Source of the DNA: a virus
Reading direction: 5' to 3' (one strand)
DNA: 45,858 bases
IMG/VR virus record: IMGVR_UViG_3300033571_004214
Coordinates: 1 to 45,858 of that record
Shown here: positions 1 through 45,858 of the stretch, piece by piece
Layout of the letters: each line of letters begins with the position of its first letter
Numbering within the stretch: position 1 is the first letter of the stretch
Translations under genes and position numbers: made by a program
The notes under the pieces: generated by a model
Database searches by the model: none
Told to the model about the DNA's origin: nothing
The model's input: the letters and a program-made list of their open reading frames with translations, nothing else

Positions 1-87
1 AACTAAGATTACTCGATGACCCTCTGGCAGAGGGACTCCAGCAGTCCGTTGGCATTGATAACAGATCGTCAAAGAACTCGGCAGAGA
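1..87. repeat. Terminal direct repeat, left copy (circular overlap)
   Basis: These 87 bases recur exactly as 45772-45858 at the other end. A coding frame continues through the join, so this is the overlap of a circular assembly (unit about 45,771 bp) rather than a duplicated gene piece. A real short terminal repeat of the virion DNA is possible, but 87 bp inside a coding sequence fits an assembler overlap better. The physical ends of the packaged DNA cannot be deduced. Confidence 0.95.
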
Positions 88-3182: not shown

Positions 3183-3485
3183 ATGAGTTCAAACATTCAA
3201 TTCGCAGGTCCTTTTTTAAAAGGGTTTGTACACACAAATTACTCAGCAACTACTACACCAGCAACCGTTGTATCTACCGCGCCTGCTGGCACTCGTAGGG
3301 CTAGCGTCATTATCCAAAATCAATCTACATCTTCAACTATCCAAGTGATCTTAAACGATACTGGATCAGCAGGGATCATTGTAGCGGCATTAGGCACATT
3401 TACTATTGATAACTATAACGGACCAATCCGATTAGTTTCTAGCACAGGCACCGTAACCACGCACATCGCTATAGCGTTATCCTAA
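3183..3485 (+). CDS. Small beta-rich virion protein
   Basis: 100 residues, rich in Ser, Thr, Ile and Val with alternating hydrophobic pattern (RRASVIIQNQSTSSTIQVIL), which predicts a small beta-sandwich. It starts one base after the previous stop and its stop overlaps the next start. It could be a capsid decoration protein or a short tail-surface protein. No motif decides between these. Confidence 0.55.
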   Translation: MSSNIQFAGPFLKGFVHTNYSATTTPATVVSTAPAGTRRASVIIQNQSTSSTIQVILNDTGSAGIIVAALGTFTIDNYNGPIRLVSSTGTVTTHIAIALS

Positions 3486-4204
3486 TGAGCGTATCTATAA
3501 CAAGTAGTGGCTCAATGAGTCCAAAAGAGCAGTTCTCTTTTAATAAGAAAAAATCATTTTCTTGTGAAAAACTTACACTTGGAACTGGTGCAAGTGCAAC
3601 TGGAACTGGTTTTCCAAATGGAGCAACTGCTGAAGTAAATGCACCATTCGATAATGCACTTCAAACTGGTGCTATTGGATACGCATTTATAGAATATTAT
3701 CATATGCTTCAAACTAGGGGTGGTGATGTATCTCAAGGTATTGATTGGACAAAAACTGTTACATTTGGATTTAGAGCGTGTCGTAAAGTTGGTGTTCTTG
3801 CAGATGCAAATTCTGAAATGAGAGCATTTCTTGGAAAAAGTTATGCTACTAGTTTGGCAAGTTCTGCTGAACCTGTTGCTGGCGATAAATGCGTTGGATA
3901 CAAGCAAGTTGGTGCTGGTGCTTTGCAAATTATGTGTGCAAACGGAACTGCAGTTTCAACAACAACAACAAGTTTTGTCCCAACAAAAGATATTGCATAT
4001 GATGTTATATTTGAAGTGTCTGGTGGTGTAGCAAATATGTATGTAAATGATGTTTTAATAGGAACAAATACAACTGCACCAAATGTAGCAACTGGTGTTC
4101 AGACTATGGCATTGTATGTAACTTGCGAAAATAAATCAGCAATAGTATCACCAAACAAAGCACATTCAGTAACAATCGGAGACTATTTCTTAACAGTTCT
4201 TTAA
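3485..4204 (+). CDS. Beta-sandwich (lectin-like) virion surface protein, probably horizontally acquired
   Basis: 239 residues with a pattern resembling concanavalin-like jelly rolls: N-terminal beta strands, YAFIEYYHML, TVTFGFRACRK, a region of CVGYKQVGAGALQIMC, then DVIFEVSGGVANMYVNDVLI and a closing strand TIGDYFLTVL. Such folds in fibre-region genes usually bind carbohydrate or trimerise, so a receptor-binding or decoration role is plausible. The gene is distinctly A/T-rich and I find no GATC in its 720 bp, although neighbours carry many (several just upstream at 3345-3390). That base usage suggests a cassette exchanged between phages. The start overlaps the previous stop (TAATG). Confidence 0.55.
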   Translation: MSVSITSSGSMSPKEQFSFNKKKSFSCEKLTLGTGASATGTGFPNGATAEVNAPFDNALQTGAIGYAFIEYYHMLQTRGGDVSQGIDWTKTVTFGFRACRKVGVLADANSEMRAFLGKSYATSLASSAEPVAGDKCVGYKQVGAGALQIMCANGTAVSTTTTSFVPTKDIAYDVIFEVSGGVANMYVNDVLIGTNTTAPNVATGVQTMALYVTCENKSAIVSPNKAHSVTIGDYFLTVL

Positions 4205-11404: not shown

Positions 11405-14400
11405 ATGCCTGAATTACCACCTAACGAGCGCCCAACATTAAGATCGGATCAGCCTGAAAATTACGATCCTAATCCACGCGGTCGTGCTATTAATGCACTT
11501 GGTAGTCCTTTAAAAGAAGTACCAAAAGAGGTACCTGAAACAGATGGATTACCTCCTTCATATGGATCAGAAGAAGAAGTAGCAAAGGCAAGGGCTAGTG
11601 CATTTGAAAAGGTAATGGGTCCTCTTCCAAATGCTGAAGGTGATCAGCCAACTAAAAATGATGTTCACATCAATAAAGTAGTTAGTGATATATACGATGA
11701 ACATTATAAAGCGATGAAAGATAGACCATACGATGCAAGCCAAGATACGCATCCTATGGCAATTGATACTACAGATAAAATTAAATTTGTAACGGCATTA
11801 TCCAAACTTTCTGGAAGAGAAATTTTAGACAATTATCCAGAGCCTATTGTAAAAGAATATTTAAGATGGATGAGGGACAATGAAGATCTTGGAAGAAAAA
11901 TATTAAAGGAAAACCATCCTGATGGACCTTCTTGGTACGAACAATTAGGTCACGGTGCTTGGGATATGGCTATGACTTTATCTGCTGGAGATATAGCAAA
12001 AGGTATTGTTCTTGTTGGATCAAAAGGAAAAGCATCACCAAGACTTGCTACTAGTTTAGAAGTACTTGATAAATATACATTAGGTATGTCTATTGGTCAG
12101 GCTAAAGGAGCAATTAAACATATTGGAAGTTTGAGTGAAATTCAGGCTAGAGAAGAAAAAGATAAAAAAGAAAATTTAAGAAACTTTGCTAAATTAGTAG
12201 CAAATAATAAAAAGCATCCAGAACTTCTTAGAGAAGATGTATTGCAAGAATTATACGACTGGTATGCTACAAAAGGTGTTAACCTGAGTCTTCAAAGTTT
12301 AAAAATTAATGATCCTGAAAAATATTCTTTAATTAAATCATTAAATATTGGTGAAAGATTTGAATTATCTTTAATGATTAATCACGAGGATCCTAGCGTT
12401 AAATCAAATTTAGTTGGATCTAAAAGACCAAGATTAAGATCTAGGAATATATCACTAGATGGATCTGAAGAATATAAAAGAAATCTTTCTTTTGCAGGAT
12501 CTATAGATCAAGAAAAAAAAGGACAAGGACAATTTTTAGATTTAATAAAAGATATCGATGTTGGTGAAAGCGGTAATGTTAAAATTGACGATTTTTATAT
12601 TAAAAATTTAGGTAAAAAAGGTATATTTGAAAATATGCCTAACTCTACTGGGGCTGAGGCACTTAAACATACTGCTGGTTTATTTTATTCGTTAACACCA
12701 ATTGCAAGGCGCGAAGCACAATTACAAGGTGGAGTTTCTTTATGGGGAGCATTTACAGGAAAATCAGATAGTCCGTTGCCTCCAATTAGAGAATCTTGGG
12801 CTGGTATTTTATTTCAACAAAGTGCTAAAAGTGATCAGGAATTATATAATAATTTTGCGGCTGGTGTAAAAACTCAGGAAGATCTTAATGCTAAAGCAGA
12901 AGGAAGAGACTCTTTAATTTTATCTAGAGTTATGGCTGGCATAACAGGTATGTCAAAAGATGAAGTAGATGAGAAATTATCATACTACGGAGCAAATAAT
13001 CAAGATCTTGCATCATCAGGCGCATTAAGATTTTCGTTGGCTGGAATGGCTGGACGAGCAGGTACTCTTACAAGGGCAGGTGTAATGGCTGGTGAAGGTA
13101 TTGCTGGTGGAACATACGCTACTGCAAAATACTTAGCATCAAAAGGGATACTTACGCTTTCACAAGCAAGCGCAGTAAGAAGCGGAGTAATGGCAAGTGT
13201 CGGTGCAGTACACGCGGTAGAGGCTTATACATTTGGTCTTCCAGTTAAACTTGTAGGGTATACAGTTGGAACTGGTGGAAGAATAATTTTAGCAGGCTAT
13301 GGATTAGCGGCACAAAAAGTTGCTGGATTAGCCGCTAAGAGCGCAAGCGCAATTGTTGGGCAAGAATTAAGCCCAAAATATTTTAGGCACACATTGATGA
13401 CACTTGGTGTAACCGATGCATTCTTTGGATTTAGCGGTGGTACAAAATTAGCCGCGATCCTTGGATTTGGAAAAGGCGCTGAAGCGTTTGGTAATATACT
13501 TTCAAAGTATGGCTATGCAGGTAAGGGAATCAACGGTTACGGATTTTCAGGAGCGATCGAACAAGCCGCTTTAGATAAAGAGATCGGATGGATGGCAGGC
13601 AGAATAGCATCTGTAGGCGCTAAATTAACTCCGCTTACTACGCTAGGACACGATGTCGTTAAAGGCGCGTGGCACGGAGCAGGTGTAGGATACGGATTAG
13701 GTTATATGCACAACGGTCACGATGGAGGTGTAGATGGAATTTGGGGTGGCGCTGGTATGGGTGGATTCGGTGGATTCCACGGATCAGCAGTAGCAATTAG
13801 ACAAGGTTATTATAGCCATAATGGAGCAACTGAGGCTCTAAGACAAATGGGTAAAAATGATCCTACAGGTGTTAATGCAAGGCACATAGAAGAGATCATT
13901 GCTAATGCTGAAGCAGATCAGGATTGGGTAAGAATACCAATGTTGGCTGGAGCGTTAAAGCAGGCTGGCAATAATAACATAACTACAATTTTACATAGAG
14001 ATGCTGACATTAGCCATATAAACGGAAGAAATGTAAATTTAAATGGTGTTCCAGATGCAGATTACAAGGTTGGAACTAAACAATTCAGAGTAAAAGAATT
14101 ACAAGCGGAAGTAGATCGTTTAAGAAAAGAATCTATTGATCATAGTAAAAATAATAGAGTAAAAGAGGCTGAAGCATCTGCTAAACTTGCTGGCGAAAAA
14201 AATGCTGAATTAAATAAAGAAATTAATGAATGGCTTACAGAAATAAGAACTAATGGAACTCAAGGACAAAGAGAAAGAGTAAATAGTAGGCAAAATGTGT
14301 ATAAAGGTGTGTGGATGGATGGTACAGTTGGTAATGGAACTATTTATATTAATTTAGATGAAACTGGATTAGTAGGATCTTCAGCAGATGGTATAGCAAG

Positions 14401-17400
14401 TAACGCTACCGCCGCTCACGAACTGGCACACGGAATTCAAAATTTAATATTAAGAGAACAAGCAATATCTCACTTTAGAACAACTATATTTGGTATTGGA
14501 ACTGCAAACGCAGATCTGGTTATGCAAAAAGGTGCATTAGATAAAGAACTGCTTTCAGAGTTTGCAGGTCTGTATACTGAAGTTTTACACGGAAACGATG
14601 TAGTTGCTGGTGACAGAGCAAAGCAAAGCATTTTAGACGCGTACGCGGTGATAGAAAATGGTAATGCTAGTGGCGCTCAAATTGAAGCCGCTAGAGATAT
14701 TTTAACTAAACACGCTGAAGAATTTGGTGTAACATATTTTGAAGGTTATCTTAGAAGAAATAAACCAGACTATTTATTCAGAGGTGGTAAATATTCAGCG
14801 TTCCAAAGAATTTTAAATAAAACAGAAAACTGGATAGATTTTAGAACTAAATTAGATCTAAATGGACAAGGTATTGCAGTTCGGATCAGAGATGTTAGAG
14901 ATGCTAGACAGAGCCAAGACATCATTAATATCAGAAATAAAGTTAATGATATAGTTAAGAAAATGAATGAAATTAATGAACAGGCTAGCAAGTTAACTAA
15001 AAAAGATGGATCTGTTCCTAGAGAAAACCAAAAAGAATATCTTAAACTTCAGGAGGAATATCTTAAACTTAAAAGAGATAAGCAAAATCTAGATAAGTCA
15101 TTAAGAAAAACAGATATAGGTGCGATATTAACAACTGCCGATGGAAGGCATATAATCATACCTCAGGCTGAACAGGCTATGGCTGATCTTGTTAGAAGAA
15201 TGGATTCTAAAGGAGATTCAACTGGAAGATTTTCATCTACTTTAGATTTAACTAGGATTAAAGATCCAGCAGAACTAGAAAGAGTTTTAAGAGAGGCTGG
15301 ATTAGAGCATTGGTTAAAAGAAGACGGAACTTTAAAATCTCAGGAACAAATAGCAGAAGAACAGGCTGAGCGCGGTGGTAAGATTATGGATTTCTTAGAA
15401 GCGCAACCTCCAGCAGTAACTGGTATTGTTATTACAACTGACGAAAAGGGTAATAAGCGTGGTGTAGGTGTATTGACAGATGAGGCTATCAATGCGCTTA
15501 AAGATGCTGGGTTGTTGTTACCATCGGAAGTAATTAAAGTAACAACGCTACGCGGTATAATTGATTTTGTTAATGGAAGATCTCCTTTAGGTGGTGGAGA
15601 ATGTAATATTACATATAATGCTTTATCAGTAGAAGTTGACGGATCTGGAAGAAGATCAAAACCAAAGCATCAGATCGAACAAACTAACCGAAACATTGTA
15701 CCTTACAAGATGGAGTTTATAATGACATCTAAGGACGCAAATGGTAATAAGATCGAACCTAGATTTGAACTTATGATCACCGCGATAGATATGGGAAATG
15801 TATTAGAGAGAGCCGCGGATGAGTTTCCTAAATCATATACGCTTCCAAGTGGTAAAGTAATTAAAGTATCTGATATGTTCTCTGGTGACTTTAATGTATT
15901 TAAAGATCATCTTGCTAACTATATGAAGAATCTTGCAGAGGGTGGGGTACCTTCTGCTGATTTATTTGGTGGAGGCGAAATGGGCGAGGCTATGAGAGAT
16001 ATTTTGCATAGAACTCTTGGTGGTATTCCAAAGGGTGGTTTCGATTCAAACGGATCCCCATTACTTTATAACAATCCAATCATCAGACCTTGGCATCCGT
16101 GGGAACGCGGTCCTAAGTTCCCATTCACTACTTTTAGATTAGATCTAATCCAAGACATATCTGTAACTGATGGTAAATTCAAATTCAACGAACAAACTGC
16201 ATATCCAAGACATCTTGGAAATTATAGCCCTGTGAACTTCTCAGCACAAACAGAATTTACTCTTAACGGAGAAAAGGTAAAAGGTATTAAAGGCGAACAC
16301 GAATTTGAAGTTATTGATAAGAAAACTGGAGATGCAAAAACAGTTAAGGTTAGATACACTGTTATTAGTAAAAATGGTAAGTTCTATGTTGGTGGATCTG
16401 ACTTTAAAGATAAGAAGTATTCATTCTCAACGATTGAACAAGCAAAGGACTTTATCGGTCTAGATTCACAAAGAAGACAATTAATAGTACAGAATTTAAT
16501 GCCAACTGCATTAGTTGGTGGAGACTCTGGTATTTTAGTAACTAACATTGATGGAAATTATATGTTAGTTGATTCAAAAAATAAATATAGATTAATTGAT
16601 GGAAAGGTATTCAGAAATGAAACTGAAGCAGTTAGAACTGCGGCTAAAATGCATAACGATGAAGCGCTTAGAATTATTAGATCTCAGAAGGATCCATCTA
16701 CTCGTTTATTTGAAGATCAAGTTGCTGAGATAACTAGAATTAATGATGAGATGCCAGATTTGCTTCCTTTAAGAATTTCTTTAAATAGAGAAGGTAAGCC
16801 TAAACTTGAAACACTTAAAGATGGAGAAGGAAAGGATCGTACATACACGGCTAAAGATCCAGCAGTTATTGCTGGTAAAGCAAAAGCAGGAGATAAAATT
16901 AAAAAATTATCGTTCCAGAAAGTAAGTTATTCTTTACAGGCAAGTATGCACGGATCAGATAAAAACAGAATGCAAGATCCAGCAGTAGAAGCATCTACTA
17001 GCCATTTAGCAGAACTTTTAAAACAAGAGGCTTTAGAGGCTAACAAAGATCCTAATAAGCGTAAAGGAATTACTTGGTACAGGGATATGGTAAAATCTGG
17101 ATATTCATTATTCGGATCTATGTACGGTATGTTCTCTGAAAGCCTTGGCGCTACCTCCGCTCGTACACCAGTAGCAACTAACTTTGTTCAGGCAGATGAG
17201 GCTTTGTCATTATTTTCCAGAGGACTTTACAACGAACAGTTAAATAGAATACACCAAGCATTTACTGAACTTGAGGCAAAAGTTTCACAAAAGAATCCTG
17301 ATGGATCAAGCGCTTTTGAAAGAGAAGCGATTGAGTTTTTAATTAGAAAAAAAAGTGCAGTAGAGGCTATTGAAGAGTTAGGTCTTAAAGGAGATGTCGA

Positions 17401-20400
17401 TTGGGTTGATCTTATGGGATGGCAAACAGATAAGTCGGCAGAAACTGGAATAACTGAAAAACTTGTTCAAAAATATGAAGAGTTATATGCAGAAAATAAC
17501 AATGGTAAGAAAAACAAATTAACTCCTACTCAATTCTCAGAAGCACTTGATACTGCAAAGAAGATGATATTTAAGCGCCCAGAGAATTTGATGCTCAGGG
17601 AAAACGGAAAGAAGTATAATGCAAACACGATCAAAGTTGGTCAGGTTATGTATAATGTATGGCACCAATTAACTGAAGGTCCTAAAACAGGAAACTTCTC
17701 AAATAATTTAGCAGGATTAAGCACAGAAGCCACAATTGATGTATGGGCGGCTAGAACATTACACAGATTAATTAATAGCAAAATTAAAGGCAGATCTAAA
17801 TGGAGACTTAGCGCTGGTCAGGAAATGGGTGTAGATTATGTATGGCATAATTACGGAACTGAGCAAATTGCCCAATGGGAAGGTGGAGGAGATTTCTTCT
17901 ACGGTCAAAAAGCATTTAGTAAAGCCGCAGAATTACTTAGAGCAGAAGGTGGAGAATTTAAAGATATTACACCTGCTGATCTACAAGCACTTCTTTGGTT
18001 CCACGAAAAAGATATATGGGCTAAGGCAGATGCTACTAATAGCATTGGCGCTGAGATGTCATCGTACGATGGTCCAATGGAAGCACTTAGCGGTGGGAGA
18101 GATCCAGCAGGAATTGATGGATGGAATAATGTCAGACGAATTATTGTTGGTTTGTCAGGATCATATGATGGTAGTTTAAATACTAAAATTAATGGTCAAC
18201 CTGTTGCAATCAATACTACTGCGCGTACATACGCGTACGATAGCGGAAAAGTTTCACAGTTTAAGAAACTTGTAACTAATATATTTGGATCATCATTAAG
18301 AGGTGCTAACATAAATCAAACTTATGGTGGATACGGTGGAGTAACTGAACACTCTTTAGCAGTAGATATTATCTCTTATAGGGGAAATAGAACTGTTACT
18401 GCATTGGCTCAACAAGCGGCTTTGCTTAAGCATAATGAAACAATTAATAAGATTGAGGCTCTTACTGATAAAATATCTAAAGAAACTGATCCTAAAGAGC
18501 GCAAAAAATTAACTACTAAGTTAAAAACTCAGCAAAACAATTTAAAGAAAAGAAGTGCTGAATTGCAAACTAAATCAGAACTAGCAAGGCAGGAACAATC
18601 ATCTCCATCACAAGGAAATCACTTGGGATCAGTAGCAGACTACATTGTACAACAAGGTAAAAACTATTCACAAAAAGATGTGTTTGTTGCTGAAGTAGTA
18701 GGTGAAAACCATCCTAATGCTCGTCCAGCAGGTGATGTTAGATTTAATAAACCATTAACAATATCTGAAGCGCTTGATATTGCTCAGGCTTTGATTGCTG
18801 ATAAAGCATTCATTGGTAACTTTACATTAATTCCAGAGCCAAGAAATCCAAATGCAGAAAAGTTAGATAAATTAACTAAAAGACTTAATGAGGTTACTAA
18901 TGGAGGAGATGAATGGAAACAGATAAAAGAAGAAATTGAAAGCCTAGGAAAATTTATTGGTGTACAAATGTCTTGTAGCCCAGAAATGAGTCATCGCTAT
19001 AGAGAATTTAGCAAGAGTCCTGAAGTAAAAGATGGTAGTTTAGATCTTATGAGCGTATCAGGCGCTAAAAAATTTATGGCTGGATGGCAGGCAGAATTTA
19101 GTCAACTTTCACAAACAATAACAACATACAATGGAACAGGAATCGAATATCAACCGTATCACATCAGCGCTGAAGTCATCCCTCAAGGATCCTACGACAC
19201 CTTCAACAGTGCAGACATCGGATCAAACATATCGCTCGGTGAGAGACTCGATAAGTACAGAATCGGACTCGAACGCGAGAATGCCCTCAGAGCCGAAAAT
19301 GAACGAGAAGGGGATCTCTTCCCAGCCGAATCCACAGTCTTCTCGAATAATCGCACAGTTTGGAATCCCACTGAGTCCCAATCAGCAGATGGATACAAAC
19401 TCAACGATGCTCTGGTACCTGATGCACAAGGGCAGGGTAAGCCCGATTCCACCAAGCAGGACAAAGTAAGATCCGCTGAGGAGGCTCAGGAATGGATCAA
19501 TAAGAATATGGCTACTCCGATCCTCAAGTCTGAGGGTGGAGTTAAATGGGGAGATAAAGAATTTACCATTACCCAGAAGCGCCTGCCTGATGGCACATTA
19601 AGTAACCAATTTGAGGTTATGGGCGCATTTGATAGAAGACCTAGCGTAGTACAAGGCAAAGAAGCCGCGATGGCTCTGATCAAAGGAAGGCTTGAAGGAA
19701 CCATTGGCGCTAAAGAAGGCGAACGGATCCTGACCATAGGCGGTGAAGAATTTAAAGTTAACGAGGCTACCCAGCCAGTAAAGGCAACTGATGAACAGGC
19801 TAAGCAATCGATCGGGATCTATCCTACAGATTCTAACATCTTTAAATATTCGCCTGTAGATACCCCTACAGTTGAATTGCACCCTTGGATGTCTAAAGGT
19901 ATCGAGGAAACATTCCCAAAAGCAGATGGCACCGTAAGAGAGATTACACCATATTCGCATAGAACACAAAAAGTTTTAGAAAGAATTAACGCTTTATTTA
20001 ATTCTGAACTGTTCCAAGGCACTGGTTTAAAAATGGTATTGAGACAGAATTCTGAAGGCACTTATGGTAGCCATAACGATAGAAGAACAAGAATATCTTT
20101 TATTTTAAAACAAAACGGAAGAGAGTCACAAGTTGGAGCGCAAAGCCTTACCATTAAATTAAGAGGAAGAACAAGAGGATCTGACGGAAAATTGAATATA
20201 GATAGAATTCCTAATGCACTTGATGAAGGAGTTATTGGATCAGCGTTTGCATTTAATGGAAGCGTATATGGTGCGAATAAAGGATTGGCATTGTTGAAAG
20301 CAAATTATCCAGATGCATACGAATACATTAAACGAATTAGTGCAGAAACTGTAAAACAAAATGGTGGAAAAATAATAGTAGAAAATAACGATTATCGAAA

Positions 20401-23400
20401 AGCATTAATTCAATATTTTAAATCTAGGGGTATTGAAGTTGAACAAAACTATAATAGCAGATACGAAGAAACTAAACAATTAACAAATGAAGGAGAAACT
20501 TTGCGAGTAGCAATTAAAGATTTATTTGGTAGTGATCTTGCTCAAACATTTTTAGATTCAAATATTGCAAGTCGCATATTATCTTTTGATCAGTATGAAA
20601 AAGTAGTATATGAAATGCAAGGCATTGGTACCGCGTTAAATTCTGAAATGGGCGCTAGATTAAAAGCAACTGGTTTACTTGGAAAAGGAACTAAGGGCAT
20701 ATCAAGTGAAGTTGTTAATCAAACAGGTGCCGTAGTTAAAACTAGAGAAACCGCATACGGTGCTGGAAATACAGAATATAAATTTCAATATGTTGGAGGA
20801 AGATTTCCAAATGGAGATCCTGCCGATAATATGAGAGAGTACTACACAAGAGACGGAAAAGAAGCAGTTGAAATAAATATTGGTAACAAAGATCTGCCAG
20901 AAGAATTTGCAACAGGTCAATCTAAACATATAGATGTAACTACTTGGGTAGATCAAAACCAAAAGTTTTCACCTGCCGAAAGACAAAATTTAGACATTAC
21001 AAGAGCGTTCCCTGAAGGTGGAGAGAACGCAACTGAGGCTCCTTATTCAAACAGAGCAAAATCTTTGATTGGCAATGGCTATAGAGTAATTGTTTCTGGA
21101 GATGGTCAAAGCAGATTTGAAACTAGCCTAAAGGATAAACAAGGCGAGGAAGTTGCTCGATTAGATTTATCTATTGAAACTAAAGATGGTAAAATGAAGA
21201 TTGGAAAAAAACAGGGTCCATTCCCTAAAGGTGGAATAGTTCATATCACTGGATATAACGATGGCAAAAAAGTAGATACGCACGATAACGCGTTTATCGG
21301 AATGTGGGCTGAAACAATTGAAAGACTTAGACAGTCTGGTGTAACTAAAATATTCTTTGATACGCTAGATCACGGAACAAGGGAAATATCTGACTTACAA
21401 ATTGGTCGCAAAATAAATATAGCAATGGGCGGTGATCCATCATCTTTAGAGCCAACAATTGATAATGTTAAACCCAATGGAAATTTATTTACTGCATTAC
21501 AAATAGCGATTGGAAAAGATAAAGCAGATGGATATAAAGATTATCACGGTGGATCTTGGATGGATGCTCTATACAGTGTTGATCCTAATAAGCGCTATTC
21601 ACCTTCAGAAAACTACGATCCTAAATTTACAGATTTTAACAAAGGCGGTGAACAACCATTCATTGGAAGATATGCTGAAAAGAATAGAAAATCAATTGAA
21701 GGTTTAACTCTATCGTTTGGAGATCGCGATGAAGGATCATTTATCCAGTTTAACGAAACTAAAAAACCACAAACATTAAAATTAGAAAAAGACGGTGAAA
21801 CAATTGGTGAAGTGAAATTTGATTTTAGGTACGAACCAACCACTAGCGATCCTGCCGTAAATAAGAAAATTGGTGTACTTAAAATGTACATTAATAGTAC
21901 TGACATTGCTCCAGAATACAGAAGAGCAGGCTTACACGATCTATTATACTCGGAACTATTTGAACGCGCTAGACAAAGCGATGTACACTCATTTGAAATT
22001 AAATACCAGCAGGAAGATGATCTTGGCTGGGGTATGAGATCTATGAATAAACTTACTGGAGGTTCAGATATAGACTCATATTTAAATGAGGGAACACCAT
22101 TAAAGGGTACCATCGATAACTATATGGAATTGCTAAACGATTCTACTATGGAAACAGAAAGATTTGGAGTTCAGGGATTAGGTAATATCGAATCAGATAG
22201 AAGATATTCACCTTCTGATTTTAGAACCATTAATAGTGGAACACCTGAAGCAAATTTTGAAAGTATATCCTTTAGAAAAGGAGAAGTTCCTGATCCAGCA
22301 AAACACTCATTGTGGCAGTTCTTAGATTATCATAAAAGATTAAAGAGTTCACGCGGATTTTCTGTAAAAGTTGGCGGTGTACTTGTTGGATCTAGAGATT
22401 CTTATGTTACATTTGAAGAGGCTTTAACATTCTTATCAAAAAAAGAAGATATACAAAGTTCATCTATGGCTAAATGGATATTGGGTATGCTTGAAAAGCA
22501 ACCTAATATAAAATCATTGCCATTGATTTTAACTGGCGCAAATGAAGGATCTTATTCAAAAGGTTCTGGTCAAAGAACTACTGTAGAAGTTAATCCAATA
22601 CCTAGGGGTCGTAATAGCGGAAGTTATTATCAATTTTATAATGAACCAAGGGCTAATAAATTATCTGAGATCCTTGACGAATATTCAAAAGCAAAAGCAG
22701 AAGAATTAAGATTAAAAAATAATCCTCCTGTATTGCACGGACCTGATTGGGCTAAGTATGAATCAGAGCGTACTGCCGCTGAACAAAAAGTTAGAGGCAT
22801 AGAATATTATTTACACGGAAATTCTATTGAAGGTGTTATGCTTGAAGAAATTATGCATAGTGTTCAGGCAAAAGCATTAGACACTCATATTAAAGGAAGT
22901 AGCAGACTAAAGAAAATATTTTATAGGGGCAAATTTACTACTCAAACGACTAATGGTCCGACAATAGCAGAATTTACAAATACTGGAAGACAATGGTTAG
23001 AGGCTACTGATACTTTTGTTAAAGAAGTAGAAACAGAAATAAGCAAAGGAAATGAAGTTAATCAAAACGATCTTACTCTTGCAAAATTATTTAAATTACA
23101 TCGTCACATAACAGATACAACAATAGTTTCTAAAGATCCAAATCTTCCTGATACTTATAAACAGTGGGATCCAAATGCAGGATCTTTTGGAGAATATGTT
23201 GATAAAAAAGTTCCAGATAAAACTCAATCTGTAACAAAAGAAATTCAAAGATCATTTAATGCAAATGATGCTACAGTACATTTAGGTACAGGAAGAGTTA
23301 TAAAAGGATTAGAAAAACCATTTTCTAATAAGAGCGTATATAGATATCAAAACCTTATGGAGTTTCTTATATCTCCATTTAACGATCCAACATTTATGAA

Positions 23401-23695
23401 GTCTTTATCAGAGTTGGGTCCTGTAGATATGAGTTCATTAGAAAAAGGAACAAAAGAATATCGTAATTTTGATAAGATGCCTAATTTCAAAAATCTATTT
23501 GAACAATTTATTGATGTAGTTGCTGAATTTATTGGATTTAAAAAGACAGATAAAAACGCGGCTACTCAATTAATTGAGTTGGTTCAAGAACTTCAAGGTT
23601 GGAATCAAAAGGAAACTGGAGGTAATGGTTTTGATATACCACCTACTGGACGAGAAGACATTAATCCAACAAATATGAGGAGACGGCAACCGTGA
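11405..23695 (+). CDS. Giant polyvalent internal virion protein (4096 residues) with a zinc metalloprotease-like motif
   Basis: One uninterrupted 4096-residue protein filling over a quarter of the genome. A hydrophobic/Gly-rich region lies at about residues 590-810. A zincin-type motif AAHELAHGIQ has H1005, E1006 and H1009 (HExxH). Coiled coils lie near 896-945, 1176-1236 and 2344-2399. A block around 2040-2330 (ATNFVQADEALSLFSRGLYN; ATIDVWAARTLHRL) resembles conserved blocks of other phage polyvalent proteins. The C-terminal third has beta modules joined by short linkers of the type K/R-Y/F-SP (about 2815, 3187, 3396, 3598), one with a GNAT-like APEYRRAGLHDLLYSEL (about 3500), and a second zincin-like EEIMHSVQ near 3815 whose first His is Glu. 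I infer injection with the DNA, with enzymatic modules acting on the envelope or host. Base composition changes abruptly at about 19136-19870. Confidence 0.7.
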   Translation: MPELPPNERPTLRSDQPENYDPNPRGRAINALGSPLKEVPKEVPETDGLPPSYGSEEEVAKARASAFEKVMGPLPNAEGDQPTKNDVHINKVVSDIYDEHYKAMKDRPYDASQDTHPMAIDTTDKIKFVTALSKLSGREILDNYPEPIVKEYLRWMRDNEDLGRKILKENHPDGPSWYEQLGHGAWDMAMTLSAGDIAKGIVLVGSKGKASPRLATSLEVLDKYTLGMSIGQAKGAIKHIGSLSEIQAREEKDKKENLRNFAKLVANNKKHPELLREDVLQELYDWYATKGVNLSLQSLKINDPEKYSLIKSLNIGERFELSLMINHEDPSVKSNLVGSKRPRLRSRNISLDGSEEYKRNLSFAGSIDQEKKGQGQFLDLIKDIDVGESGNVKIDDFYIKNLGKKGIFENMPNSTGAEALKHTAGLFYSLTPIARREAQLQGGVSLWGAFTGKSDSPLPPIRESWAGILFQQSAKSDQELYNNFAAGVKTQEDLNAKAEGRDSLILSRVMAGITGMSKDEVDEKLSYYGANNQDLASSGALRFSLAGMAGRAGTLTRAGVMAGEGIAGGTYATAKYLASKGILTLSQASAVRSGVMASVGAVHAVEAYTFGLPVKLVGYTVGTGGRIILAGYGLAAQKVAGLAAKSASAIVGQELSPKYFRHTLMTLGVTDAFFGFSGGTKLAAILGFGKGAEAFGNILSKYGYAGKGINGYGFSGAIEQAALDKEIGWMAGRIASVGAKLTPLTTLGHDVVKGAWHGAGVGYGLGYMHNGHDGGVDGIWGGAGMGGFGGFHGSAVAIRQGYYSHNGATEALRQMGKNDPTGVNARHIEEIIANAEADQDWVRIPMLAGALKQAGNNNITTILHRDADISHINGRNVNLNGVPDADYKVGTKQFRVKELQAEVDRLRKESIDHSKNNRVKEAEASAKLAGEKNAELNKEINEWLTEIRTNGTQGQRERVNSRQNVYKGVWMDGTVGNGTIYINLDETGLVGSSADGIASNATAAHELAHGIQNLILREQAISHFRTTIFGIGTANADLVMQKGALDKELLSEFAGLYTEVLHGNDVVAGDRAKQSILDAYAVIENGNASGAQIEAARDILTKHAEEFGVTYFEGYLRRNKPDYLFRGGKYSAFQRILNKTENWIDFRTKLDLNGQGIAVRIRDVRDARQSQDIINIRNKVNDIVKKMNEINEQASKLTKKDGSVPRENQKEYLKLQEEYLKLKRDKQNLDKSLRKTDIGAILTTADGRHIIIPQAEQAMADLVRRMDSKGDSTGRFSSTLDLTRIKDPAELERVLREAGLEHWLKEDGTLKSQEQIAEEQAERGGKIMDFLEAQPPAVTGIVITTDEKGNKRGVGVLTDEAINALKDAGLLLPSEVIKVTTLRGIIDFVNGRSPLGGGECNITYNALSVEVDGSGRRSKPKHQIEQTNRNIVPYKMEFIMTSKDANGNKIEPRFELMITAIDMGNVLERAADEFPKSYTLPSGKVIKVSDMFSGDFNVFKDHLANYMKNLAEGGVPSADLFGGGEMGEAMRDILHRTLGGIPKGGFDSNGSPLLYNNPIIRPWHPWERGPKFPFTTFRLDLIQDISVTDGKFKFNEQTAYPRHLGNYSPVNFSAQTEFTLNGEKVKGIKGEHEFEVIDKKTGDAKTVKVRYTVISKNGKFYVGGSDFKDKKYSFSTIEQAKDFIGLDSQRRQLIVQNLMPTALVGGDSGILVTNIDGNYMLVDSKNKYRLIDGKVFRNETEAVRTAAKMHNDEALRIIRSQKDPSTRLFEDQVAEITRINDEMPDLLPLRISLNREGKPKLETLKDGEGKDRTYTAKDPAVIAGKAKAGDKIKKLSFQKVSYSLQASMHGSDKNRMQDPAVEASTSHLAELLKQEALEANKDPNKRKGITWYRDMVKSGYSLFGSMYGMFSESLGATSARTPVATNFVQADEALSLFSRGLYNEQLNRIHQAFTELEAKVSQKNPDGSSAFEREAIEFLIRKKSAVEAIEELGLKGDVDWVDLMGWQTDKSAETGITEKLVQKYEELYAENNNGKKNKLTPTQFSEALDTAKKMIFKRPENLMLRENGKKYNANTIKVGQVMYNVWHQLTEGPKTGNFSNNLAGLSTEATIDVWAARTLHRLINSKIKGRSKWRLSAGQEMGVDYVWHNYGTEQIAQWEGGGDFFYGQKAFSKAAELLRAEGGEFKDITPADLQALLWFHEKDIWAKADATNSIGAEMSSYDGPMEALSGGRDPAGIDGWNNVRRIIVGLSGSYDGSLNTKINGQPVAINTTARTYAYDSGKVSQFKKLVTNIFGSSLRGANINQTYGGYGGVTEHSLAVDIISYRGNRTVTALAQQAALLKHNETINKIEALTDKISKETDPKERKKLTTKLKTQQNNLKKRSAELQTKSELARQEQSSPSQGNHLGSVADYIVQQGKNYSQKDVFVAEVVGENHPNARPAGDVRFNKPLTISEALDIAQALIADKAFIGNFTLIPEPRNPNAEKLDKLTKRLNEVTNGGDEWKQIKEEIESLGKFIGVQMSCSPEMSHRYREFSKSPEVKDGSLDLMSVSGAKKFMAGWQAEFSQLSQTITTYNGTGIEYQPYHISAEVIPQGSYDTFNSADIGSNISLGERLDKYRIGLERENALRAENEREGDLFPAESTVFSNNRTVWNPTESQSADGYKLNDALVPDAQGQGKPDSTKQDKVRSAEEAQEWINKNMATPILKSEGGVKWGDKEFTITQKRLPDGTLSNQFEVMGAFDRRPSVVQGKEAAMALIKGRLEGTIGAKEGERILTIGGEEFKVNEATQPVKATDEQAKQSIGIYPTDSNIFKYSPVDTPTVELHPWMSKGIEETFPKADGTVREITPYSHRTQKVLERINALFNSELFQGTGLKMVLRQNSEGTYGSHNDRRTRISFILKQNGRESQVGAQSLTIKLRGRTRGSDGKLNIDRIPNALDEGVIGSAFAFNGSVYGANKGLALLKANYPDAYEYIKRISAETVKQNGGKIIVENNDYRKALIQYFKSRGIEVEQNYNSRYEETKQLTNEGETLRVAIKDLFGSDLAQTFLDSNIASRILSFDQYEKVVYEMQGIGTALNSEMGARLKATGLLGKGTKGISSEVVNQTGAVVKTRETAYGAGNTEYKFQYVGGRFPNGDPADNMREYYTRDGKEAVEINIGNKDLPEEFATGQSKHIDVTTWVDQNQKFSPAERQNLDITRAFPEGGENATEAPYSNRAKSLIGNGYRVIVSGDGQSRFETSLKDKQGEEVARLDLSIETKDGKMKIGKKQGPFPKGGIVHITGYNDGKKVDTHDNAFIGMWAETIERLRQSGVTKIFFDTLDHGTREISDLQIGRKINIAMGGDPSSLEPTIDNVKPNGNLFTALQIAIGKDKADGYKDYHGGSWMDALYSVDPNKRYSPSENYDPKFTDFNKGGEQPFIGRYAEKNRKSIEGLTLSFGDRDEGSFIQFNETKKPQTLKLEKDGETIGEVKFDFRYEPTTSDPAVNKKIGVLKMYINSTDIAPEYRRAGLHDLLYSELFERARQSDVHSFEIKYQQEDDLGWGMRSMNKLTGGSDIDSYLNEGTPLKGTIDNYMELLNDSTMETERFGVQGLGNIESDRRYSPSDFRTINSGTPEANFESISFRKGEVPDPAKHSLWQFLDYHKRLKSSRGFSVKVGGVLVGSRDSYVTFEEALTFLSKKEDIQSSSMAKWILGMLEKQPNIKSLPLILTGANEGSYSKGSGQRTTVEVNPIPRGRNSGSYYQFYNEPRANKLSEILDEYSKAKAEELRLKNNPPVLHGPDWAKYESERTAAEQKVRGIEYYLHGNSIEGVMLEEIMHSVQAKALDTHIKGSSRLKKIFYRGKFTTQTTNGPTIAEFTNTGRQWLEATDTFVKEVETEISKGNEVNQNDLTLAKLFKLHRHITDTTIVSKDPNLPDTYKQWDPNAGSFGEYVDKKVPDKTQSVTKEIQRSFNANDATVHLGTGRVIKGLEKPFSNKSVYRYQNLMEFLISPFNDPTFMKSLSELGPVDMSSLEKGTKEYRNFDKMPNFKNLFEQFIDVVAEFIGFKKTDKNAATQLIELVQELQGWNQKETGGNGFDIPPTGREDINPTNMRRRQP

Positions 23696-24030
23696 ACCAA
23701 ACAGATCCAGATCTAGTAGGCGCTATGCAAGACTTTAAAAAAGGTGGATGGGTTGTTAGTCTATTTGGTGGCGCTGGTATGTTAGCCAGAATGCTATTAA
23801 CCGATAAGGCTAGCCCTATTATGGTTTGGATCAGGCGCACACTTGCTGGATCTATTATCGGTGTACTTGCTTACTTTGCAATATGGGGTCAACCGATCAG
23901 CGGTATTTATAAGGCTATTATACTTTCTGTGTCTGGTGCTATTGCACCTGAATTACTTGAACACTTTATTCTAAGAGCGAAAGGAGCCAACGAAAATGTC
24001 AAAAGTAAGAACAAGAGAAAGCGTAAGTGA
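23692..24030 (+). CDS. Putative holin (GTG start)
   Basis: 112 residues starting with GTG, overlapping the giant gene's stop (GTGA) and preceded by AGGAG at 23678-23682. The pattern is a short cytoplasmic helix (MQDFKKGGWVVSLFGGAGML), two to three hydrophobic stretches (TLAGSIIGVLAYFAIWG; GIYKAIILSVSGAIAPELLE) and a very basic tail (SKNKRKRK). This matches small holins of the LydA-like or lambda-like type and the lysis position after the virion genes. Holin identity is inferred from size, membrane topology and the charged tail. Confidence 0.6.
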   Translation: MNQTDPDLVGAMQDFKKGGWVVSLFGGAGMLARMLLTDKASPIMVWIRRTLAGSIIGVLAYFAIWGQPISGIYKAIILSVSGAIAPELLEHFILRAKGANENVKSKNKRKRK

Positions 24031-24304
24031 AGTAATCATACTTTTACAGAGTTCATTGCTAATGCTATTAGCAGTGGCAGGTATGGCATCTACCGATGCA
24101 GTAACCAGAGGATTTAATGCATTAACTAATGCAGACTCCTGCGCATATATAATTACTGATGGAGCGATCGTGACCGAAACAGAAAATATTTCTGTAGAAC
24201 GAGTTCAGGCTATAATACAAAACTATGAATTGATTAACACATCGATCCTAGCAATTGGTATTATTATATTTGTCGCTACTTTAATAAGACTAATAAAAAA
24301 ATAA
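23996..24304 (+). CDS. Two-helix membrane protein of the lysis-type cluster
   Basis: 102 residues, overlapping the putative holin by 35 bases, with its own GGAG upstream (23984-23990 region). Hydrophobic helices lie near residues 14-32 (VIILLQSSLLMLLAVAGMA) and 80-99 (TSILAIGIIIFVATLIRLIK), separated by a polar loop of about 45 residues. It could be an antiholin, a second holin or an inner-membrane spanin-like partner. The loop is too short and lacks the coiled coil of a standard Rz, so I leave it unnamed. Confidence 0.5.
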   Translation: MSKVRTRESVSEVIILLQSSLLMLLAVAGMASTDAVTRGFNALTNADSCAYIITDGAIVTETENISVERVQAIIQNYELINTSILAIGIIIFVATLIRLIKK

Positions 24305-24305
24305 T

Positions 24306-24716
24306 ATGTACTACATTGTATTACTCACATTACTCCTGACTGGTTGTACTACACCCAGCGACCGCGCGTTTGATTATGATCCTGAGATCCCTAGCGATGT
24401 TTACTTAGAACGGATCCAGTTAGAACTGGACGCTGAGAACACGGCTAGCCAAAACGATATCCTAAACTATACGGCAGTAGCCTTAATTGTGCTAGGATCG
24501 GTGTCACTAGCGTTTGGTCATTTAGTGGGTGTATCCAAGGTAGGGTCACTCAGTCTAATCGCCTCTGGAGCCATTTGTGCAAGTCTTCCAAGACTGTTCC
24601 AGAGCGAATATTTCATATATCTAGCGTTTTTTGTTATTTCTGTGGGTTGCATTGTATTGTCCGTGTTTCTCTGGAAACGGTACCAAGATAGGGTTGACAA
24701 AGACGATCTGATCTAA
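24306..24716 (+). CDS. Predicted lipoprotein with three further membrane segments
   Basis: 136 residues. The N-terminus is a lipoprotein signal with lipobox LLTGC (Cys14), followed by a charged region and three hydrophobic segments (VALIVLGSVSLAFGHLVG; LSLIASGAICASLP; YLAFFVISVGCIVLSVFLW). A lipobox in a lysis cluster suggests an outer-membrane spanin (Rz1-like), but the extra membrane helices are not typical of Rz1. It starts directly after the previous stop and is the last gene before a terminator. The lipobox would fit a Gram-negative host. Confidence 0.5.
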   Translation: MYYIVLLTLLLTGCTTPSDRAFDYDPEIPSDVYLERIQLELDAENTASQNDILNYTAVALIVLGSVSLAFGHLVGVSKVGSLSLIASGAICASLPRLFQSEYFIYLAFFVISVGCIVLSVFLWKRYQDRVDKDDLI

Positions 24717-24840: not shown

Positions 24841-24915
24841 TGGCGCGGATACTAGGAATCGAACCTAGATTCTCTGCTTAGAAGGCAGATGTTCTATCCG
24901 TTGAACTATATCCAC
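24841..24915 (-). tRNA. tRNA-Arg, anticodon UCU
   Basis: 75 bases on the minus strand. It folds as: acceptor GTGGATA/TATCCGC (one T-G wobble), D stem GTTC/GAAC, anticodon stem TCTGC/GCAGA with loop CTTCTAA (anticodon TCT), variable GAAT, T stem CTAGG/CCTAG with loop TTCGATT, discriminator G and an encoded CCA. It would read AGA (and AGG), which is the usual Arg codon in the A/T-rich virion genes but rarer in the GATC-rich early genes that use CGC. The 5' base is shared with the stop codon of the leftward gene upstream, so it is presumably cut from that operon's transcript. Confidence 0.95.
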
Positions 24916-45608: not shown

Positions 45609-45858
45609 ATGACCAACCAAGAAAATAATGATAACGCTGAACAAGCGAATCCGCAAGTGGATACTAGTCCGCTTTCGTTAGATAGACTCGCGTCTATGAT
45701 CGAGACTTCCTCGCTTACTAGTGGGCAAGGAACGGATGCTACCGAATCCGATATGCAGTCGGCAGAAGACCAACTAAGATTACTCGATGACCCTCTGGCA
45801 GAGGGACTCCAGCAGTCCGTTGGCATTGATAACAGATCGTCAAAGAACTCGGCAGAGA
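45609..45858 (+). CDS. Putative scaffold protein, 5' part (continues at base 1)
   Basis: The ATG at 45609 starts MTNQENNDNAEQANPQVDTS, an acidic, Asn/Gln-rich, probably disordered N-terminus. The frame stays open through 45771 and continues from the circular join into the gene ending at 845, for a total of 335 residues. The last 87 bases here are the same as bases 1-87. The acidic disordered N-terminus and position after the portal support a scaffold. Confidence 0.7.
   Translation, partial: MTNQENNDNAEQANPQVDTSPLSLDRLASMIETSSLTSGQGTDATESDMQSAEDQLRLLDDPLAEGLQQSVGIDNRSSKNSAE
45772..45858. repeat. Terminal direct repeat, right copy (circular overlap)
   Basis: Identical to bases 1-87. See the left copy for the reasoning that the genome is circular in assembly, about 45,771 bp. 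Confidence 0.95.

What the first reader, a model, noticed from the sequence alone, without database searches (positions are those of the whole stretch)
11405..23695. A 4096-residue polyvalent virion protein with a metalloprotease-like centre
The protein has HELAHG at 1005-1009, an HExxH zinc-protease signature, and several other modules joined by recurring K/R-Y/F-SP linkers (about 2815, 3187, 3396, 3598). A GNAT-like block (APEYRRAGLHDLL) lies between two linkers. Giant injected proteins carrying several enzymes are known in phages, but this combination in a 46-kb genome takes over a quarter of coding space. The YSP linkers may be processing sites that release the modules.
Basis: partly seen in the sequence, partly recalled or inferred. 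Interest (0 to 1): 0.75.

Follow-up and report, generated by a model that had tools for sequence, protein, structure and literature searches.

The report
Giant multi-enzyme phage injection protein
One phage spends about a quarter of its genome on a single 4,096-residue protein that is probably packed in the virus particle and injected into the host; it joins a zinc-protease-like domain, a conserved domain with the fold of DNA-repair glycosylases, and exchangeable end modules.

Summary
The ORF and motifs are real. The window is a complete podovirus-like genome (exact 87-bp direct terminal repeat); the gene lies between virion genes and a putative lysis cassette. Six related contigs encode the same protein (intact ORFs 4,413-4,897 aa in four). 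HExxH is invariant, with a downstream AEEFG whose Glu fits a third zinc ligand; this pairing recurs in 17 of 28 distinct giant proteins (1.4 expected). GNAT is weakly supported (E 0.003). Three SP motifs start modules that are repeated or shared between phages; they mark boundaries, but cleavage is not shown and their K/R-Y part is not conserved. The protein belongs with the known polyvalent proteins (Iyer 2017), for which metallopeptidase processing was already proposed. A glycosylase-fold domain in that class was not found in the papers searched. Virion location, injection and all activities remain inferred. New variant of a known kind.

The parts
11405..23695 (+). Giant ORF, 4,096 aa
   Evidence: Single ATG-started frame; homologous ORFs of 4,413-4,897 aa in four related contigs, truncated ones in two more
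13022..13804 (+). Residues 540-800, Gly/Ala-rich, the only region of positive mean hydropathy; candidate packaging/ejection region
   Evidence: Composition; homologous in L096, L101, L103, L104; function inferred
14282..14854 (+). Residues 960-1150, zincin-like metallopeptidase domain
   Evidence: Conserved in seven proteins and in L096
14417..14431 (+). HExxH (HELAH, residues 1005-1009)
   Evidence: His, Glu, His invariant; on a predicted helix, low confidence
14714..14728 (+). AEEFG (residues 1104-1108); E1106 candidate third zinc ligand
   Evidence: Invariant in seven; similar Glu motif 17/28 vs 1.4 expected; on a predicted helix
14942..16924 (+). Residues 1180-1840, conserved core with no assigned fold
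   Evidence: Conserved in seven, partly in L096 and L103
16967..18124 (+). Residues 1855-2240, DUF7178 domain with DNA-glycosylase (HhH-GPD) fold
   Evidence: Pfam 28.7 bits, cut-off 27; AF2 pLDDT 86.6 pTM 0.82; VIA-align 3knt Z 9.7
17684..17686 (+). Lys2094, candidate catalytic Lys of the glycosylase fold
   Evidence: Invariant in 47 sequences
17738..17740 (+). Asp2112, candidate catalytic Asp, 18 residues after Lys2094
   Evidence: Invariant in 47 sequences
18587..19849 (+). Residues 2395-2815, conserved region with QKDV and HPNARP motifs, no assigned fold
19844..19855 (+). KYSP at 2814; KYRP in relatives, probably not a module start
20963..21592 (+). Residues 3187-3396, module R1, begins with KFSP
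   Evidence: Homologous to R1, R2 and R3 modules of relatives
21593..22201 (+). Residues 3397-3599, module R2, begins with RYSP, contains the GNAT-like block
   Evidence: Pfam Acetyltransf_1 E 0.0029, below cut-off; 30-residue match to L096
22202..23692 (+). Residues 3600-4096, C-terminal module, begins with RYSP
   Evidence: Homologous to C-terminal modules of L096 (E 4e-11) and L101/L103/L104
22844..22858 (+). EExxH (EEIMH, residues 3814-3818); possibly an altered HExxH
   Evidence: EExxH in four relatives and in L096, L101-L104
9024..11399 (+). 791-aa ORF just upstream, candidate second internal/ejection protein
   Evidence: Position and conservation in relatives; no family hit of note; inferred
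23692..24716 (+). Three small ORFs downstream, putative lysis cassette (membrane proteins, one with a lipoprotein-like start)
   Evidence: Read from the sequence; conserved in relatives; no family hit

Best explanation
A phage polyvalent protein, probably carried in the virion and ejected into the host with the DNA. The N-terminal quarter, with its Gly/Ala-rich block, probably serves packaging and ejection. Then come a zincin-like metallopeptidase domain, a conserved core, a DNA-glycosylase-fold domain (DUF7178) with a Lys/Asp pair like that of glycosylase/AP lyases, and variable C-terminal modules: a GNAT-like block and an EExxH module. Most likely the glycosylase-fold domain acts on DNA (incoming, host or rival) early in infection and the C-terminal modules are exchangeable effectors. 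Shown: the ORF, conservation, a predicted glycosylase fold, repeated and shared modules. Inferred: virion location, injection, all catalytic activities and targets.
For: HExxH and AEEFG invariant in seven and present in distant L096; HExxH plus Glu motif 17/28 vs 1.4 expected. DUF7178 model pLDDT 86.6 with glycosylases as the top VIA-align rows, clear of the rest; K2094/D2112 invariant in 47; a solo mycobacteriophage DUF7178 protein is annotated glycosylase. HExxH far upstream of DUF7178 in 34 of 49 further ORFs. C-terminus 24-29% identical over under half its length while core is 42-50% and capsid 89-92%. Gene position beside virion genes, as described for polyvalent proteins (PMC5512222).
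Against: No experiment; no virion proteomics. Foldseek alone gave no significant PDB match for DUF7178 and no PDB sequence match. HExxH region of the model has pLDDT about 50. GNAT below Pfam cut-off. 15 of 49 ORFs show no HExxH, several of them truncated.
Confidence: 0.7

Rival explanations
1. Self-processing polyprotein: the zincin cuts the chain at the [KR][YF]SP boundaries, before packaging or after injection, and frees the modules.
For: SP motifs sit at module starts and are enriched in giant ORFs; P1 DdrB is cut before packaging and autoproteolysis was proposed for such domains (PMC5512222).
Against: K/R-Y is not kept at homologous starts: LFSP, AYSP, AYKP, NFAAS, NLSP. Shared module ancestry explains the motif. 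Many giants with HExxH have no such motif. N4 virion RNA polymerase is packaged uncut.
Confidence: 0.2
2. The DUF7178 domain is a glycosylase of nucleosides or RNA (queuosine-salvage-like) and not of DNA.
For: The queuine salvage enzyme DUF2419 is the second-best fold match: Z 7.6, 210 aligned, rmsd 5.1.
Against: The 8-oxoG DNA glycosylase scores higher with lower rmsd; Lys/Asp spacing of 18 is that of endonuclease III K120/D138 (own knowledge).
Confidence: 0.12
3. The domains are structural: the fold bodies serve packaging, DNA binding or ejection and the enzymes are inactive relics.
For: The C-terminal module has EExxH in place of HExxH in all relatives seen; GNAT motifs are degenerate in the near relatives' modules.
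Against: HExxH, the Glu motif and the Lys/Asp pair are invariant while surrounding sequence drifts.
Confidence: 0.15

Closest known systems
Phage polyvalent proteins (Iyer et al. 2017, PMC5512222)
   Same: Many unrelated domains in one chain, zincin-like metallopeptidase as hub, GNAT among known partners, gene beside virion genes
   Different: Glycosylase-fold DUF7178 domain not mentioned in that paper; 4,096 aa in a 46-kb genome; SP-started modules
Coliphage N4 virion RNA polymerase gp50 (PMC12633501)
   Same: Giant ejected podovirus protein (about 3,500 residues) with an HExxH domain
   Different: No RNA polymerase family detected here; order and partner domains differ
HhH-GPD DNA glycosylases (MjaOgg 3knt, Pa-AGOG 1xqp)
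   Same: Predicted fold; Lys/Asp pair 18 apart
   Different: Embedded in a giant chain with a long helical insertion; no sequence-level match to solved glycosylases; activity untested
Pfam DUF7178, e.g. mycobacteriophage Popcicle gp87
   Same: Same family (window fragment 28.7 bits, cut-off 27; gp87 245.6 bits), same GPKT/APKT...VDVWAAR motif
   Different: gp87 is a solo 191-aa protein, annotated 'glycosylase' without evidence cited
L096 and L101/L103/L104 giants (IMG/VR, 2,283-2,461 aa)
   Same: Gly/Ala-rich block, zincin, core and C-terminal EExxH module
   Different: No DUF7178 found in L101, L103 or L104 and no match to it in L096; far shorter

Membership tests
Phage polyvalent proteins | Several unrelated domains in one chain | tested here: met
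   Zincin motif pair, DUF7178 fold, GNAT-like block, C-terminal module
Phage polyvalent proteins | Gene among virion genes | tested here: met
   Same strand, after capsid and tail-type genes, before putative lysis genes
Phage polyvalent proteins | Packaged in the virion and injected | not testable with these tools
   Needs proteomics
Zincin-like metallopeptidase of polyvalent proteins | HExxH on one helix | tested here: met
   Invariant motif; helix in the model, low confidence
Zincin-like metallopeptidase of polyvalent proteins | Glu on a following helix as third ligand | tested here: inconclusive
   Sequence pattern strong, helix predicted, distance not measurable
Zincin-like metallopeptidase of polyvalent proteins | Fold match to solved zincins | tested here: inconclusive
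   1,200-residue model did not test this part
Pfam DUF7178 | Score above gathering cut-off | tested here: met
   28.7 bits vs 27 for the fragment; whole protein 21.8, below cut-off; relative L033 38.7
HhH-GPD DNA glycosylase | Fold | tested here: met
   3knt Z 9.7, 180 aligned, rmsd 3.8; 1xqp Z 6.2, 172 aligned, rmsd 4.8; unrelated rows at most Z 3.7; predicted model, Foldseek alone not significant
HhH-GPD DNA glycosylase | Catalytic Lys and Asp about 18 apart | tested here: met
   K2094 and D2112 invariant in 47; reference spacing from own knowledge
HhH-GPD DNA glycosylase | Base excision activity | not testable with these tools
   Needs assay
GNAT acetyltransferase | Score above Pfam cut-off | tested here: not met
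   18.4 bits vs 20.7, E 0.0027
GNAT acetyltransferase | R/Q-x-x-G-x-G/A loop | tested here: inconclusive
   RRAGLH in the window, last position differs; TGKGFG in L096
N4-type virion RNA polymerase | RNA polymerase core | tested here: inconclusive
   No polymerase family hit; residues 1180-1840 have no assigned fold

The most novel reading that the evidence does not exclude
A widespread group of uncultivated phages injects a DNA glycosylase/AP lyase fused to a metalloprotease in one giant chain, so that base excision on incoming, host or rival DNA is among the first enzymatic acts of infection, with exchangeable C-terminal modules as further effectors.
Probability: 0.4. Interest if true: 0.7.

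Novelty: new variant of a known kind. Interest (0 to 1): 0.52.

Why it matters
It gives a likely fold and candidate catalytic residues to a Pfam family of unknown function (DUF7178), and makes it testable whether phages deliver base-excision enzymes at entry. The mosaic of modules offers a natural set for asking whether giant polyvalent proteins are cut and, if so, where.

Tried and rejected
A relative search with the whole protein found nothing, its patterns being exact 8-mers; going through the capsid protein worked. No relative in 50,697 phage records with the window protein in two pieces or with two distant relatives; a more distant DUF7178 query reached actinophages. PDB sequence searches with zincin and DUF7178 profiles gave no meaningful hit. 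The 1,200-residue model was too mixed for fold search, and the L096/L099 fragments were misplaced in its alignment. The C-terminal EExxH module did not match the zincin profile by hhalign, so 'altered zincin' stays a guess from motif resemblance. The window's R2 taken alone does not match R1 or the relatives' R2 by hhalign (0.2-2.7%), so that it is a copy of the same repeat is not shown. Modules R1-R4 did not match L085, which has three [KR][YF]SP of its own. Phage C75C1 shares terminase and capsid, but its giant ORFs lack HExxH and show no homology.

Full report
OBSERVATION. The ORF at 11405-23695 is one ATG-started frame of 4,096 residues. HELAH at 1005-1009 is its only HExxH (0.08 expected from composition). 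[KR][YF]SP occurs at 2814, 3187, 3397 and 3600 (4 seen, 0.09 expected). The window carries an exact 87-bp direct terminal repeat, so it is a complete genome and the gene takes about 27% of it. Capsid, terminase and portal genes match families of podovirus-type phages.

RELATIVES. A capsid-protein scan found 17 IMG/VR loci, capsid 73-92% identical. Six of these records carry the giant protein: intact ORFs of about 4,888, 4,413, 4,626 and 4,897 aa, and two cut at contig ends. Against these six, capsid is 89-92% identical, the giant's core (961-2815) 42-50%, and its C-terminal region 24-29% over less than half its length. The C-terminus is therefore the most variable large part. Searching 50,697 phage records with the window protein gave nothing.

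METALLOPEPTIDASE. HExxH and a downstream AEEFG are invariant in the seven proteins and present in L096, a 2,283-aa giant of a more distant phage. Among 28 non-redundant giants with HExxH, 17 have a matching Glu motif downstream, against 1.4 expected by shuffling and 2.0 in random windows of the same proteins. The pattern was chosen after looking at these sequences, and in the window protein it caught a different stretch than AEEFG, so the ratio is indicative. HExxH on one helix and a Glu on a following helix is the layout described for the metallopeptidases of polyvalent proteins (PMC5512222). The AF2 model puts both motifs on helices, but with pLDDT near 50 at HExxH.

THE MISSED DOMAIN. Residues 1855-2240 include the best-conserved stretches. 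A profile of this region found 54 IMG/VR loci and one contig of a Verrucomicrobiales MAG. In 49 ORFs examined it mostly lies towards the C-terminus, and 34 of them have HExxH upstream. It belongs to Pfam DUF7178: all 47 aligned members match, the window fragment with 28.7 bits against a cut-off of 27. From the sequence I suspected the HhH-GPD glycosylase pattern: Lys2094 in GPKT and Asp2112 in TIDVWAAR, 18 apart, both invariant in 47 sequences. The domain was then modelled alone (pLDDT 86.6, pTM 0.82). VIA-align ranked first 3knt, an 8-oxoguanine glycosylase/lyase (Z 9.7, 180 of 205 residues, rmsd 3.8), then the queuine-salvage enzyme DUF2419 (Z 6.3-7.6), then the glycosylase Pa-AGOG 1xqp (Z 6.2, 172 aligned, rmsd 4.8); the next row, unrelated, has Z 3.7. 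Foldseek alone had no significant PDB match. Among viral models the domain matches uncharacterised proteins of uncultured phages, and more weakly one named 'Large polyvalent protein associated domain-containing protein'. A solo mycobacteriophage relative scores 245.6 bits for DUF7178 and is annotated 'glycosylase'. The fold is likely; activity is inferred.

MODULES AND SP MOTIFS. In the relatives, modules R1, R2 and R3 are homologous to each other (hhalign 73-97% for the family profiles, against at most 15% for unrelated pairings). They begin with [YF]SP followed by a shared stretch. The window's R1 (3187-3396) belongs to this set; its R2 (3397-3599) starts with RYSP in the same place but taken alone shows no significant match to the others. 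R2 matches three GNAT models weakly, the best at E 0.0027, below cut-off, and a 30-residue piece matches a GNAT-like block with TGKGFG in L096. The last module (3600-4096) recurs in L096 (E 4e-11) and in L101/L103/L104, whose proteins share the Gly/Ala-rich block, zincin and core. DUF7178 was not found in L101/L103/L104 and no match to it appeared in L096. All these C-terminal modules carry EExxH. SP motifs therefore mark starts of repeated or shared modules. At homologous positions they read LFSP, AYSP, AYKP, NFAAS or NLSP, and the 2814 site is KYRP in relatives. This favours shared ancestry of module starts over a strict protease site, without excluding cleavage.

MECHANISM. The gene follows virion genes and precedes a putative lysis cassette, the usual place of podovirus internal proteins (own knowledge). 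Polyvalent proteins of phages are typically encoded near late genes, in keeping with inclusion in the virion (PMC5512222). N4 gp50, about 3,500 residues with an HExxH domain, is ejected and is proposed to travel as beads on a string (PMC12633501). By analogy the window protein is probably ejected, its glycosylase-fold domain acts on DNA early in infection, and its C-terminal modules are exchangeable effectors. Virion location, injection, catalysis and targets are all untested.

NOVELTY. The class, the metallopeptidase hub, GNAT partners and the processing idea were published in 2017. A glycosylase domain was not found in that paper, nor a description of it in polyvalent proteins in the searches made. 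The library holds open-licence papers only, so this absence is weak evidence. Verdict: new variant of a known kind.

Noticed in passing
window 1-87 and 45772-45858: Exact 87-bp direct terminal repeat, so the record is a complete, circularly closed or permuted genome; one reading frame runs across the junction into the scaffold-like gene.
   Followed up: partly
window 3485-4204: This gene has no tblastn match in any of the nine related contigs tested while its neighbours do; possibly an exchanged gene.
   Followed up: no
window 24841-24915 (-): tRNA-Arg (tct) in the gap between the late (+) and the early (-) gene blocks.
   Followed up: no
L089 4991-11050: A 2,020-aa ORF with HExxH and DUF7178 on a 40-kb contig binned with a Verrucomicrobiales MAG: a possible host hint for part of the family.
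   Followed up: no
L085 3241-10458: A 2,406-aa giant of another lineage with three [KR][YF]SP of its own at 1305, 1586 and 1771 before its DUF7178 domain; its modules do not match those of the window.
   Followed up: partly
L082/L083 1099-9957: A 2,953-aa giant with two HExxH motifs, at 929 and 2341.
   Followed up: no
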